Source: a virus. From it: a stretch of 29,102 nucleotides of DNA. The notes under the pieces were generated by a model. That model had not been told where the DNA came from, did not search any database, and saw only the letters and a list, made by a program, of their open reading frames with translations. Where the stretch lies: positions 1 through 29,102 of IMG/VR virus record IMGVR_UViG_3300010885_022365, one strand, 5' to 3'. Both the position numbers and the translations under genes were made by a program. Position 1 is the first letter of the stretch, and every line of letters starts with the position of its first letter. Positions 6,927 to 24,512 of this stretch are shown one piece after another.

Positions 6927-6946
6927 TATTTTTCCCTTTGGGGTGA

Positions 6947-6984
6947 GTGGCACGGTGAAGTCCCCTTTTTACAGGGCATGCCAC
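6947..6984 (-). other. Inverted repeat in the 5' leader of the gene starting at 6926
   Basis: GTGGCA at 6947-6952 and TGCCAC at 6979-6984 form a 6-bp stem; within it CCCT (6963-6966) and AGGG (6973-6976) form a second. It lies between the capsid terminator and the ribosome site of the next gene, so it would be a structured 5' leader or an RNA processing site. No promoter is evident. Confidence 0.35.
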
Positions 6985-7029
6985 CCATAGAAAACAACCC
7001 ATCTTCACTTGGGTAATCCATCATAACAT

Positions 7030-7053
7030 AAAAAAAGGGCTACATAGTAGCCC
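7030..7053 (-). terminator. Rho-independent terminator after the major capsid gene
   Basis: On the minus strand GGGCTAC, a 3-base loop and GTAGCCC make a perfect 7-bp stem (7037-7053), followed by seven Ts (7030-7036). It begins 21 bases after the capsid stop codon at 7074. It should lower expression of the connector and tail genes relative to the capsid. Confidence 0.85.
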
Positions 7054-7073
7054 TAATATCACGCTTAAGAAAC

Positions 7074-8102
7074 TTAACTTGCTGATGCTGACAAAATGGT
7101 TAATGCTTCAGGTCTGATAACCCATCCTGAAGTAGAACGCATTGTGTATAAAGTAGTAATACCACCATCTGCAATTGGTGTTGGAATTTCAGTAGGTGCT
7201 GAAACGTCAGTCAACATCAATGATGTAGCAGTTTGATTTGGTGTGAGTGTTGCAAAAATGTTGGTATTGATTGTGTTGTTTGCGTTCATCACTTTCAATT
7301 CAGGGGCAATTAAAATAATTGCATCTGTTCCACCTGCACCTGCACCAATGAGTGTATCGTCTACTGCAAATGATACATCATCACCACCTGACCACTTAGC
7401 AACAGTTTCTACTACACCTGCTGCGGTCTCTACACCTGCACCTATTCTTTGGAATTGTGTTAACTGAACAACTCCTGAATAAGAGATTTGGGTAATAAAG
7501 CGTTGTGGTGCTAAGAATACAAATCTTAATGGCTGACCAACTTGATATGTACGTTGCTTAAGTTGAGCAATCATGTTGAGCATATATTGTGCTAACTGAC
7601 CACTATCCCAATTTTCGTAACCAATAGAACCATTAGTATCTGCAGGCAATACCTGAGTAGTTGCACCGTTAGTGTTTAATAGACCTTCACCATTTGCAGG
7701 ATTGTATCCAAACAAAAGTGAGTTTCTTAACTGTTGTGCAATACCTTGACGAGCAGCGAGTCTCATGGCTTGTGGTAATGAATAATTCCAATTAGCAGTT
7801 GCTGATTCATCAAAGCCATCATACTGACTGCGTGTCTGCAATCTATATGTTGGTGTTGAAATCATACTAGGAATAACTGAAGCACTTGGCAAGTTGTTAG
7901 CCGTTGATTGATTAGCAGAAACCTGTGTGGTTAACTGAATCTTTTTAGCGTAAACATACAAATCACCTTCACCTAAACGTACCATTGGGTTTTCTGTAGC
8001 CAAAGTGCTGAAAGCACCTGAAGCCAAAGAATACTGCATGATGAGTTCAGGCATCATGTAATTTGGATTTACGGTGATATAACTAGGTGCGAATCCTGAC
8101 AT
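7074..8102 (-). CDS. Major capsid protein (DUF2184-like)
   Basis: This 342-residue protein starts at an ATG with a strong AAGGAG site. The sequence fits the DUF2184 phage capsid family: an N-terminal 'MMPELIMQY' segment, a beta-hinge region, RFVFLAPQRFITQISYSG in the middle, and a C-terminal domain ending in TTLYTMRSTSGWVIRPEALTIL. It has the usual length for an HK97-fold capsid of this group. A terminator follows directly, as expected for the most abundant structural protein. It is preceded by a putative decoration protein and the protease/scaffold polyprotein. The HK97 fold is inferred from family. Confidence 0.8.
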   Translation of the reverse strand: MSGFAPSYITVNPNYMMPELIMQYSLASGAFSTLATENPMVRLGEGDLYVYAKKIQLTTQVSANQSTANNLPSASVIPSMISTPTYRLQTRSQYDGFDESATANWNYSLPQAMRLAARQGIAQQLRNSLLFGYNPANGEGLLNTNGATTQVLPADTNGSIGYENWDSGQLAQYMLNMIAQLKQRTYQVGQPLRFVFLAPQRFITQISYSGVVQLTQFQRIGAGVETAAGVVETVAKWSGGDDVSFAVDDTLIGAGAGGTDAIILIAPELKVMNANNTINTNIFATLTPNQTATSLMLTDVSAPTEIPTPIADGGITTLYTMRSTSGWVIRPEALTILSASAS

Positions 8103-21302: not shown

Positions 21303-21376
21303 CTGCTATATGTATATAGTATACCCCTGTTATACGATTGTCAATCATTTTTTTACATTATTTTAAAATATTTTTA
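21303..21376 (-). promoter_or_regulatory. Promoter P2 (minus) for the gene at 21272
   Basis: Minus strand: TTGACA (21339-21344), 17-base spacer, TACTAT (21316-21321), then 5 bases and TATAGCAG (21303-21310). The same UP-like block as in P1 (TAAAAATATTTTAAAA at 21361-21376) lies at the same 16-base distance upstream. Near-consensus; the strongest sigma70 promoter match on this arm. Confidence 0.8.
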
Positions 21377-22270: not shown

Positions 22271-22543
22271 ATCATCTCCTAAAAACAAGTGTTATGTTCC
22301 CCCTCTAAAAAACAGGGAAACGTAAAACTTAGCAATTCTGTTAGGTAATTATGGATTGCTTATTCTAAAGATTCATACTTCTATAAATCCTTAACGTAGA
22401 GCCGGAGATTCCTGTCAAGGTCAACTCTATACTAGCCAATCTTTTATCTATTACTTTGTGCTACTCAAACGATTAGGGTACGGGGCATACCCACCTAACA
22501 AAACATTTACTGCTTACAACTCATCATTCCAACTACACAGACG
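22271..22543 (-). other. Gene-free structured leader downstream of the terminator-like RNA
   Basis: No credible reading frame. On the minus strand several helices are visible. GGGTA/TACCC encloses TGCCCCG. AAGGATTTATA pairs with TATGAATCTTT (11 bp with two GU pairs) around a GAAG loop. AGCAAT/ATTGCT forms another helix. TAGAG/CTCTA and CCTTGAC/GTTAAGG are interleaved. A GTTTCCC/GGGGGAAC helix lies just before the ribosome site of the gene at 22270. Length and density of helices suggest a regulatory leader or ncRNA; no known class recognised. Confidence 0.4.
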
Positions 22544-22660
22544 AAAAAAAACCTTTAAATAGATTCCGTGTTCTCACCCCCACACTAATTGTCTATAGTG
22601 GGGCACAGAACCTAATTAAAGGTCTTTACACAGGGTGAGAATCTGCTTATTTGTATATTA
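22544..22660 (-). ncRNA. Structured RNA / attenuator with interleaved helices and terminator (RNA-2)
   Basis: Downstream of a promoter the minus-strand RNA (about 105-110 bases) contains these elements in order. X' (22628-22644) is followed by S (ACCTTTAA, 22616-22623). A central hairpin comes next (GTTCT/AGAAC with CCCC/GGGG, 22570-22611). X (22561-22571) and S' (TTAAAGGT, 22551-22558) follow, then eight Us (22544-22551). X' pairs with X (AGATTC/GAATCT plus CCTGTGT/ACACGG) and S with S', which are interleaved and so compete or form a pseudoknot. A 9-bp alternative TTCTCACCC/GGGTGAGAA also exists. Seen in sequence; function inferred. Confidence 0.6.
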
Positions 22661-22683
22661 TAACTATTTTATCCTTTTGTCAA
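22655..22683 (-). promoter_or_regulatory. Promoter P3 (minus) for RNA-2
   Basis: TTGACA (22678-22683) followed by TAATAT at 17-base spacing (22655-22660), or TATAAT at 15 (22657-22662). The following bases ATACAAATAAGCAG resemble the start of the P2 transcript. It overlaps the last codons of the ATPase gene. Confidence 0.7.
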
Positions 22684-22690
22684 CACTTTT

Positions 22691-23545
22691 TTAAATATCT
22701 TTTTCAACTTCCCCAAAATATTTGACAGGTTCTTTTTTAGGAAATGTAATGATTTTGGGTATTTCAACTGTTACCTTGTTTAAGAACACTTCTCGTTCTT
22801 TGGTAATATGAAATGTTGTATCTTGAACAACACCTCTTGATTTGCCACCTTTATCTGTGTTGGCCGTGCAAAGAACATCACTACTGCCATCTGCGTGTTT
22901 TTGTTGAATAAGGTAAATAAGTTCGTCAAAGTCATTGCGTAAATCGCTTGTACCCTCGTAAATGGGATTACCATCTTCGTCTTTAAACTTGTTGGTGTGA
23001 CTTGCACAAATGATGCTCATGCCTTTAAGTGTGCATTTGCGTAATATTTTGTTAAATTCTACGATTAAGCGTTTATCCATAACTGAGGTAAACTTTTTAA
23101 GCGTATCTAATATGACGACTGTTTTGCCATAATCTGCTTTACCATTACCTACGGCTTTTAACCATTCAATAACCTTTTCAATTCCATGCCCTGTCATATC
23201 AGGATTAATTAATTTATAACCATGTTTATCTGCATGAGCAAAATAATATTTCATGTCTGATGCTGATGCGTCTACGTTAATGTAAGCAACTTTATAACCT
23301 CGTTGTACCATTTCAGTACAACAGAAATTTAAAAGGGTCGTTTTACCAACTCCTGCTTCTGAACAAAATAATGTCATGTGTGAATGTATAAAAAGTTTTT
23401 GGAATAAATGTTTGGTGTTTTCAATGTTCTTAACATGCTTCTCTGTAATTTCCATCTGCTCTAATTGTGCAAAAGGATTGTTTTGATGCTCATGTTCTTT
23501 TTGTAATTGTTGAAAATTTATTGTATCTTTTACTAAGTTTTCCAT
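22691..23545 (-). CDS. RecA/RepA-like AAA ATPase (replication-initiation type)
   Basis: This 284-residue ATPase carries Walker A CSEAGVGKTT (about residues 61-70), Walker B KTVVILDTLKKF (about 141-152), and the following motif GMSIICASHTNKFKDEDGNP (sensor-like His/Asn), then TSDLRNDFDELIYLIQ. The fold resembles RepA/KaiC-type hexameric ATPases that phages use for replication or recombination. An N-terminal helical extension (1-55) may bind a partner. The start overlaps the upstream gene by 13 bases. It is the likely replication motor of this arm; a specific helicase role is inferred. Confidence 0.75.
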   Translation of the reverse strand: MENLVKDTINFQQLQKEHEHQNNPFAQLEQMEITEKHVKNIENTKHLFQKLFIHSHMTLFCSEAGVGKTTLLNFCCTEMVQRGYKVAYINVDASASDMKYYFAHADKHGYKLINPDMTGHGIEKVIEWLKAVGNGKADYGKTVVILDTLKKFTSVMDKRLIVEFNKILRKCTLKGMSIICASHTNKFKDEDGNPIYEGTSDLRNDFDELIYLIQQKHADGSSDVLCTANTDKGGKSRGVVQDTTFHITKEREVFLNKVTVEIPKIITFPKKEPVKYFGEVEKDI

Positions 23546-23862
23546 GTATGGATTGTTCCTTCAATGTCGGCTATTAAAAATGATGGTTCTAATTCGAGTA
23601 TAGCAAGCACCCATTGAGTCGTTAACTCTATATCAGGGGTAACACTTATGATGTGTATCTTTAATCCCCTGAGGTACCAAATAGATTGACTTGATGGCAA
23701 TGTAGAGCCTGTGTAGATGCTTGGAAAAAATCCGTTGTCTAAATCGTTCTCGGTTTCTAATTCAGGAATTGTCTCAAAGGGGTGTGAGTTAATATGGAAA
23801 AATACGGCTTGTGGCTGTAACCCTTGTTGTCGGTATTTTATTATTTGTTGATGGCCGAGCAT
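23533..23862 (-). CDS. Unknown protein, coupled to the ATPase
   Basis: This 109-residue protein starts at the ATG at 23862, whose AGGA ribosome site (23870-23873) lies 7 bases upstream, inside the terminator helix of leader RNA-1. The sequence opens MLGHQQIIKYRQQGLQPQAVFFHIN, a pattern I recall from other phage hypothetical proteins next to replication ATPases, and has ITSVTPDIE-like IHIISVTPDIELTTQWVLAILELEPSFLIADIEGTIHTW at the C-terminus. It overlaps the ATPase start by 13 bases, so the two are translated together. Role unknown. Confidence 0.6.
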   Translation of the reverse strand: MLGHQQIIKYRQQGLQPQAVFFHINSHPFETIPELETENDLDNGFFPSIYTGSTLPSSQSIWYLRGLKIHIISVTPDIELTTQWVLAILELEPSFLIADIEGTIHTWKT

Positions 23863-24000
23863 AAAAAAATCCTAGTTGAGAAAACGATTCGGCAAGTGTC
23901 CGACCTGTTTTACTAAACCTACTCTCGTTTAATAAAACAGACTTACCTACTACATTTTCTCAACTAGGACTTTTCGTGTCGGACTCACTTTGTCTAATTG
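23863..24000 (-). ncRNA. Leader RNA-1: attenuator with terminator helix over the ribosome site
   Basis: The minus-strand RNA (about 140 bases) has in order: X' (23978-23990), S (TCCTAGTTGAGAAAA, 23955-23969), a hairpin CTGTTTTA/TAAAACAG plus GTTTA/TAAAC with 8-base loop (23905-23940), X (23894-23904), S' (23870-23884), seven Us and then the ATG of the gene at 23862. S and S' are perfectly complementary over 15 bp, an intrinsic terminator that also buries the AGGA ribosome site. X' and X pair over 11 bp with a 2-base bulge (AAGTG, TCCGAC). The two helices interleave, so they exclude each other or form a pseudoknot. Looks like a switch. Confidence 0.72.
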
Positions 24001-24008
24001 ATAGTATA

Positions 24009-24037
24009 ACTATAAACTACTTTTTTACTTTTGTCAA
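24009..24037 (-). promoter_or_regulatory. Promoter P4 (minus) for leader RNA-1
   Basis: TTGACA (24032-24037), 17-base spacer, TATAGT (24009-24014). Expected start near 24002, which places the whole switch inside the transcript. It overlaps the end of the regulator gene. Confidence 0.72.
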
Positions 24038-24240
24038 ATATCTGCTTCAGAACCATAAATTTCAGGACTCAGTTCAAATCTGCTAACTCCTGACATTTGC
24101 TCAATTCTTAATATGTAATGTGCAGGTATTCTGCCATTTTTTGCCCAAGCGTAAATAGCGGCTCGAGTTAATCCTAATTCTCTTGCCAACTGTGCTTTGC
24201 CAATAATTCGTAATGCTTTTTCAATTGGGGTTAAATACAT
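24034..24240 (-). CDS. Cro/YdaS-like repressor
   Basis: This 68-residue protein starts at an ATG with AGGA 7 bases upstream. Residues 16-36 form a classic HTH: AQLARELGLTRAAIYAWAKNG, followed by RIPAHYILRIEQMSGVSRFELSPEIYG, the ending of the Cro/YdaS (YdaS_antitoxin-type) family. It is the first leftward gene of the divergent control region, the position of phage Cro-type regulators. It presumably binds operators between 24.24 and 24.51 kb and perhaps the TATAGC sites. No CI-like repressor is visible beside it. Confidence 0.78.
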   Translation of the reverse strand: MYLTPIEKALRIIGKAQLARELGLTRAAIYAWAKNGRIPAHYILRIEQMSGVSRFELSPEIYGSEADI

Positions 24241-24512
24241 TTGTAAATCCTTTTTAATTTAATATACGCATATTATCACAATATTTATACGATTGCAAAC
24301 ATTTTGTAAAATTAATGTTTTGCAAAACGCTATTGACAATGTTTACAATGTGTGCTAATAAGATAATCAATTATCATATATTTTATACATTGTCAATAAA
24401 TTTATTTGCATATTTTTTACAAATAGTTAAAAATTTGTTTGACAAATGTAAAACATATCTATACTATAGAACTATAGCAATATCGCTATATATTAAATAG
24501 GAAAAAAATCAA
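24241..24512. promoter_or_regulatory. Divergent early control region
   Basis: Gene-free. Besides the rightward promoter P5 it holds a second plus-strand promoter candidate (TTGACA 24333-24338, 17 bases, TAATAA 24356-24361). On the minus strand it holds two candidates: TTGCAA 24293-24298 with TAATAT 24270-24275, and TTGACA 24391-24396 with TAATTG or GATAAT. ATTGACAATGT and ACATTGTCAAT form a long inverted repeat around the centre. TTTTGCAAAA and a CAATAGCGTT half-site (24326-24335, minus) are further candidate operator parts. Which promoters are active is inferred. Confidence 0.6.
24439..24490 (+). promoter_or_regulatory. Promoter P5 (plus) with downstream palindrome
   Basis: TTGACA (24439-24444), 17 bases, TACTAT (24462-24467), 5 bases, then TATAGCAATATCGCTATA (24473-24490), a palindrome with TATAGC/GCTATA arms. 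It lies at the transcription start, so a bound dimer would block initiation. It drives the rightward early genes from 24513. Confidence 0.8.

What the first reader, a model, noticed from the sequence alone, without database searches (positions are those of the whole stretch)
23863..24037. Leader RNA whose terminator helix buries the ribosome site of the next gene
On the minus strand, promoter P4 starts a transcript of about 140 bases that ends in a perfect 15-bp helix (S/S') and U7, directly followed by the ATG of the gene at 23862. The AGGA ribosome site is in S'. An upstream element X' (AAGTGAGTCCGAC) can pair with X (GTCGGACACTT) inside the loop of S/S'. Because the pairs interleave, X'/X pairing and S/S' pairing compete or form a pseudoknot. 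This is the layout of a switch between 'terminate and hide ribosome site' and 'read through and translate' for the unknown protein and the replication ATPase. I do not recognise a known riboswitch class.
Basis: partly seen in the sequence, partly recalled or inferred. Interest (0 to 1): 0.78.

Follow-up and report, generated by a model that had tools for sequence, protein, structure and literature searches.

The report
Phage replication-gene attenuator with kissing hairpins
Just before two replication genes, a freshwater phage carries an RNA that can fold either into a stop signal hiding the next gene's ribosome site or into an alternative pair of hairpins, laid out like the replication-control switches of some plasmids, and a second, similarly built RNA lies about 1.2 kb further on.

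Summary
On the minus strand a near-consensus promoter (24037-24009) starts a leader of about 140 nt. It ends in a 15-bp helix (S/S'), U7 and the ATG at 23862; AGGA lies in S'. It is the strongest fold in the window (z -8.5 to -8.9). (1) X is exactly a 7-nt bulge in a 44-bp hairpin. (2) The 5' end (A, UCAAUUAGAC) mimics S' and pairs with S (5/500 shuffles as good), so before S' is made the RNA folds as two hairpins whose loop (X') and bulge (X) are complementary. (3) A second element of the same topology but different sequence lies at 22648-22541; a third, in a related phage (L079), also has A/S and precedes a replication-initiation gene. Best reading: a transcription attenuator. A/S is the pre-emptor, S/S' the terminator plus ribosome-site lock, the layout of the pT181 repC leader, with an added loop-bulge contact and no visible antisense promoter. 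No sequence homologue, Rfam family or covariation set was found, so function and trigger are inferred. The controlled genes would be a 109-aa protein (start codon supported by a Bordetella phage-plasmid homologue) and a replication ATPase.

The parts
24009..24037 (-). Promoter P4, TTGACA-17-TATAGT; one of several TTGACA promoters with similar spacers in this phage
   Evidence: 11/12 consensus; similar promoters at 21344, 21039, 22683 (-) and 24439, 26026 (+)
23992..24001 (-). A (UCAAUUAGAC): near-copy of S', pairs with S; proposed pre-emptor/antiterminator arm
   Evidence: duplex -8.5, 5 of 500 shuffles as good; formed in prefix folds up to ~100 nt and again at 114-126 nt
23978..23990 (-). X' (AAGUGAGUCCGAC; core GUCCGAC 23984-23978), in the loop of hairpin I
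   Evidence: complementary to bulge X, 0 of 200 shuffles
23955..23969 (-). S, 5' arm of terminator helix; also partner of A
23941..23947 (-). S2 5' arm (GGUAAGU)
23905..23940 (-). H: 14-bp hairpin with loop GAGAGUAG
23898..23904 (-). X (GUCGGAC), 7-nt bulge between H' and S2'; extension ACUU 23897-23894 overlaps S2'
23891..23897 (-). S2 3' arm (ACUUGCC)
23870..23884 (-). S', 3' arm of terminator helix; contains the ribosome site AGGA
23863..23869 (-). U7 of the intrinsic-terminator-like site
23533..23862 (-). 109-aa gene; homologue (26%) next to a DnaB-C helicase in a Bordetella phage-plasmid; start codon supported by alignment from Met1
22691..23545 (-). Replication ATPase/helicase-like gene, start overlaps the 109-aa gene's end
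   Evidence: phrog_6357 E 4e-9, phrog_239 primase/helicase E 2e-7
24034..24240 (-). cro/YdaS-like regulator gene just upstream
   Evidence: Pfam YdaS_toxin E 4e-13, phrog_35 repressor
22655..22683 (-). Promoter of element 2, TTGACA-17-TAATAT
22541..22648 (-). Element 2: X' UUCUCAC (22641-22635) in a hairpin loop, long hairpin with 7-nt bulge GUGAGAA (22577-22571), U8; same topology, no sequence similarity, no A element, no start codon next to it

Best explanation
It is a transcription attenuator (with a short terminated RNA as product) that gates the phage's replication genes. RNA polymerase starting at P4, or reading through from the cro-like gene, first makes hairpin I (A pairs with S, X' in its loop) and then hairpin II (S2-H, with X as a 7-nt bulge). 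Pairing of loop X' with bulge X (about -12.7 kcal/mol as a free duplex) would hold hairpin I together; this is the read-through form. When S' emerges it can displace A and form S/S', an intrinsic terminator that also buries AGGA, the only ribosome site of the 109-aa gene; that gene's end overlaps the ATPase start, so both would go off together. Shown here by sequence and folding: the helices, their interleaving, their excess over chance, and the start codon. Inferred: that termination occurs, that X'/X forms and favours read-through, what shifts the balance (perhaps the terminated RNA itself, in trans), and the biological direction of control.
For: z -8.5/-8.9 and rank 1 in the window; X' complement of the bulge 0/200, A/S 5/500; successive-length folds pass through A/S, X'/X, two hairpins, then S/S'; SD closed in one form, partly open in the other; sense strand folds much better than antisense, -56 vs -38, so the RNA rather than a DNA palindrome is the likely object; a structural relative in L079 also has A/S (1/500), X' loop, X bulge and U7, and lies before a replication-initiation gene; the pT181 repC leader has the same pre-emptor / terminator-with-RBS layout (PMC5703833).
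Against: No termination data. The terminator fold is about 24 kcal/mol better than any fold with X'/X, so read-through must rely on kinetics or a factor. Element 2 lacks A (421/500) and lacks the buried ribosome site. No homologues, so no true covariation. Pseudoknot energies, kinetics and 3D reach (a linker of about 8 nt beside a long helix) were not computed.
Confidence: 0.5

Rival explanations
1. RNA-on-RNA control of the P4 CI / IsrK / C4 type: the terminated RNA of about 140 nt, or a processed piece, acts in trans. Its X' loop or S arm pairs with X or S' of other leader molecules and either enforces termination (immunity, copy sensing) or opens the buried ribosome site of read-through mRNA, as IsrK does.
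For: Strong promoter, terminator, ribosome site hidden in read-through mRNA, and translational overlap with the next gene all match the isrK locus as described (PMC4825925). Position before replication genes matches P4. A related interleaved leader precedes an antirepressor gene in Pantoea phage PdC23.
Against: No second target: X and X' core 7-mers occur elsewhere in the window only once, inside a gene, below chance expectation, and those of element 2 occur nowhere else. Elements 1 and 2 do not cross-complement. P4 itself does not match the descriptor convincingly.
Confidence: 0.2
2. Plain intrinsic terminator between the cro-like and replication genes, or an RNase III processing hairpin; X', A and the ribosome-site overlap are incidental.
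For: Perfect stem and U7; more than 40 near-continuous base pairs would suit RNase III; compact genomes often place terminators against gene starts (general knowledge).
Against: X'/X and A/S each beat shuffles, and both recur together in L079. A plain terminator does not need its own strong promoter 140 nt upstream.
Confidence: 0.17
3. A protein- or ligand-sensing leader: a phage or host protein (cro-like, 109-aa protein, ATPase) or metabolite binds the two-hairpin form and sets termination.
For: The 5/4-nt internal loop and the loop-bulge geometry could form a binding site; autoregulation by the first gene is common in leaders (general knowledge).
Against: Nothing in the sequence names a ligand; the three elements share no conserved sequence that would make a common pocket; no Rfam match.
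Confidence: 0.1
4. A DNA-level element (replication origin hairpin or inserted palindromic repeat).
For: It lies next to replication genes and is palindromic.
Against: Single copy in the genome; the RNA sense strand is far more stable than the antisense because of G-U pairs; X/X' and A do not follow from a simple palindrome.
Confidence: 0.03

Closest known systems
pT181 repC leader attenuator (pre-emptor, stem-loop IV, RNAI), PMC5703833
   Same: A terminator stem directly before a replication gene that also contains its ribosome site; its 5' arm has an upstream alternative partner (pre-emptor; here A).
   Different: pT181 is driven by a countertranscript; no antisense promoter above chance was found here. 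The X' loop / X bulge contact is extra. No sequence relationship was tested.
IsrK locus of prophage Gifsy-1, PMC4825925
   Same: Own promoter, short terminated RNA, read-through mRNA with closed ribosome site of a small gene coupled to the next gene.
   Different: IsrK acts in trans on orf45 about 100 nt further on; trans action is untested here. In IsrK the ribosome site is not described as part of the terminator stem. Controlled gene there is an antirepressor.
Phage P4 CI RNA / seqA-seqC immunity (as summarised in PMC4825925)
   Same: RNA-controlled termination before phage replication genes.
   Different: CI RNA has two complementary targets and is processed from the leader; here one internal pair X'/X, no second target, and the P4 record does not show this two-hairpin form.
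P1/P7 C4 RNA (PMC12197685)
   Same: Structured phage RNA whose loops complement sequence near a ribosome site.
   Different: C4 acts on ant mRNA; no Rfam match at all in this window.

Membership tests
pT181-type replication attenuator | Terminator stem with ribosome site immediately before a replication gene | tested here: met
   the 109-aa gene is replication-linked only by its neighbours
pT181-type replication attenuator | Upstream pre-emptor that pairs with the 5' arm of the terminator | tested here: met
   A/S, 5 of 500 shuffles
pT181-type replication attenuator | Countertranscribed antisense RNA against the leader | tested here: not met
   best plus-strand site at 23600-23990 scores 8/12, typical of shuffles; consensus scan only, so it works like but is not filed as this family
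IsrK-type dual sRNA/mRNA | Short RNA from own promoter ending at a terminator, with silent read-through mRNA | tested here: inconclusive
   layout and folding agree; no expression data
IsrK-type dual sRNA/mRNA | Short RNA activates the read-through mRNA in trans | not testable with these tools
   needs reporter experiments
P4 CI immunity RNA | One RNA segment complementary to two leader sites, one on each side | tested here: not met
   only the X'/X pair in the leader; the other genomic copy of the 7-mer is inside a gene
Known Rfam riboswitch or leader class | Covariance-model match | tested here: not met
   0 at gathering score; best permissive hits E 2-9
Intrinsic terminator | G+C-containing stem directly followed by a U-run | tested here: met
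   stem 15-17 bp, U7; termination itself not testable
Common family of elements 1, 2 and L079 | Detectable common descent (sequence or covariance model) | tested here: not met
   model R1 finds only element 1

The most novel reading that the evidence does not exclude
A new, sequence-variable class of phage attenuator in which two leader hairpins kiss through a loop and a 7-nt bulge. The kiss, rather than an antisense RNA or ligand, delays termination, and accumulated terminated RNAs could disrupt it in trans as a copy sensor for phage replication. The class would include both elements of this window, the L079/L114 element and possibly the Pantoea PdC23 leader.
Probability: 0.2. Interest if true: 0.75.

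Novelty: new variant of a known kind. Interest (0 to 1): 0.5.

Why it matters
If true, phage replication genes here are gated by an RNA switch of the plasmid copy-number type, with no antisense partner visible. The element is recognisable by architecture although sequence and covariance searches miss it, so such switches may be commoner in phages than catalogues show. Each helix predicts a specific mutant phenotype, so the idea is directly testable.

Tried and rejected
Rfam at gathering and permissive thresholds: nothing. Homologous leaders by DNA in 42 capsid-related phage contigs, in phage and plasmid collections and by exact patterns in viral contigs: no match or only chance hits, and the hits were read and folded. 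A covariance model built from the single sequence found nothing in the 42 related contigs and only element 1 and its reverse complement in the window, L079, L114, L122, L203 and P4, so elements 2 and 3 are topological, not sequence, relatives. HDV-like ribozyme: helix order is similar, but X' of element 2 does not begin with G, S is far too long and no model matches; rejected. DNA palindrome/mobile repeat: rejected as sole explanation. Start-stop AUG-UAG inside S (23955-23950): noted, not pursued. Capsid homologues and 109-aa homologues in genome contigs: none. AlphaFold of the 109-aa protein and ATPase without alignment: pLDDT 40, unusable. DUF932-linked early regions, 0.87 Mb: no further element. 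PdC23 leader in E. coli genomes: no match. A first control scan timed out and was replaced.

Full report
Observation. The promoter TTGACA-17-TATAGT ends at 24009, so transcription should start near 24002. The leader ends with S' (23884-23870), U7 (23869-23863) and the ATG at 23862. The fold is far from random: -62.6 kcal/mol against -30.3 +/- 3.8 for shuffles. It is the most extreme of 1450 windows on both strands, z -8.9, and the best terminator-linked inverted repeat in about 0.7 Mb of related phage DNA plus the window.

Anatomy. S/S' is the outer part of a 44-47 bp hairpin that continues as S2 (7 bp) and H (14 bp). On the 3' side between H' and S2' there is a single bulge of exactly seven nucleotides, GUCGGAC, which is X. 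Its complement X' lies upstream of S; none of 200 shuffles of the upstream stretch supplied a 7-bp partner. The 5' end of the RNA, A = UCAAUUAGAC, is nearly a copy of S' (UCAACUAGGA) and pairs with S; 5 of 500 shuffles pair as well. X' lies in the loop between A and S.

Order of events predicted by folding successive lengths. Up to about 100 nt: A/S and H. At 105-112 nt: X'/X with H (probability 0.93-0.99). From 114 nt: hairpin I (A/S, X' in the loop) plus hairpin II (S2-H with bulge X). By about 126-128 nt S/S' takes over, and in the full leader it is about 24 kcal/mol better than the best fold with X'/X. In the free read-through fold the Shine-Dalgarno AGGA is never unpaired; with hairpins I and II imposed it is partly open (0.31-0.9 per base). 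So the real rival of the terminator is A/S, and X'/X would be a loop-bulge contact between hairpins I and II. These are thermodynamic predictions; pseudoknot energies and kinetics were not computed.

The controlled genes. The 109-aa gene has no start codon other than 23862 in its first half (read). A homologue in a Bordetella bronchiseptica phage-plasmid aligns from Met1 almost to the end (26% identity, pairwise E 2e-14) and is likewise followed, with overlap, by a DnaB-C helicase gene. That homologue has no leader of its own, because it overlaps the gene before it. The two helicase-type proteins themselves show no convincing pairwise match; the window's ATPase matches phage families including a primase/helicase. 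Upstream lies a cro/YdaS-like regulator. The order is cro-like gene, leader, small replication-linked protein, replication ATPase.

Structure-only relatives. A second element lies in the same window at 22648-22541, behind another TTGACA promoter: X' UUCUCAC in a 9-nt hairpin loop, a long hairpin with a 7-nt bulge GUGAGAA, U8. It lacks A (421 of 500 shuffles as good) and is not directly followed by a start codon, so ribosome-site hiding is not part of it. A descriptor scan found a third in a capsid-related phage, L079 (near-copy in L114): A/S with 1 of 500 shuffles as good, X' GUGACAA in the apical loop, bulge UUGUCACC and U7. It lies about 290 nt before a gene that matches replication-initiation families. 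Pantoea phage PdC23 has a related but more elaborate interleaved switch just before a Rha/KilAC antirepressor gene.

Controls. In 2.16 Mb, 55 terminator hairpins with a 3' bulge were found; 7 had a 7-bp partner for the bulge within 50 nt upstream against 0.8 expected, and all 7 were among the 12 most stable (0.2 expected; that cut was chosen afterwards). Of the 7, L079 and L114 are near-duplicates, one lies in a coding region and one in GC-rich repeats. A reversed-sequence control of 1.25 Mb gave one independent, much weaker hit. Another 0.87 Mb of early-region DNA gave none. The relatives are rare and above chance, but a covariance model of element 1 does not find them, so common descent is not shown.

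What it works like. Pre-emptor, terminator and ribosome site within one stem directly before a replication gene is the layout of the pT181 repC leader (PMC5703833). That system is driven by a countertranscript; here no antisense promoter above chance was found. The short RNA plus silent read-through mRNA resembles IsrK of Gifsy-1 and, through it, P4 CI immunity (PMC4825925). Membership is not claimed in any of these: the antisense RNA of pT181 and the second target of CI are missing, and trans action as in IsrK cannot be tested here.

Verdict. The best-supported mechanism is an attenuator with A/S as antiterminator, S/S' as terminator and ribosome-site lock, and X'/X as a contact that would stabilise the antiterminator. 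Termination, the role of X'/X and the signal remain inferences. It is a new variant of a known kind; interest is moderate, raised by the second element in the window and the one in L079.

Noticed in passing
window 22648-22541 (-): Second promoter-hairpin-terminator RNA of the same topology and different sequence, 250-275 nt before the next gene (start about 22270).
   Followed up: yes
L079 14016-13869 (-), near-copy L114: Related-phage attenuator with A/S, X' loop and X bulge, about 290 nt before a replication-initiation-like gene; an ORF of 142 aa runs through it but matches no family.
   Followed up: partly
L122 (Pantoea phage PdC23) 37110-37276 (+): Terminator/antiterminator leader with two nested upstream complements, directly before a Rha/KilAC antirepressor gene; followed by a two-codon AUG-GGC-UAA frame.
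   Followed up: partly
window 24037, 22683, 21344, 21039 (-); 24439, 26026 (+): Set of similar strong promoters (exact TTGACA, 17-nt spacer, -10 close to TATAAT), apparently the phage's early promoters.
   Followed up: partly
window 24300-24350: Palindromic AT-rich repeats (TTTGCAAAACATT...AATGTTTGCAA) between the divergent early genes, likely operators of the cro-like regulator.
   Followed up: no
window 23955-23950 (-): AUG immediately followed by UAG inside S; a ribosome parked there would block S/S'.
   Followed up: no
window 23533-23862 (-) and L203 796-1128: Unnamed small protein family (about 110 aa) placed directly before replicative-helicase-like genes in two unrelated phages.
   Followed up: partly
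window 6940-7080 (-): Stable hairpins (z -4.9) behind the capsid gene, including GGGCTACTATGTAGCCC-U7, which looks like an ordinary terminator.
   Followed up: no
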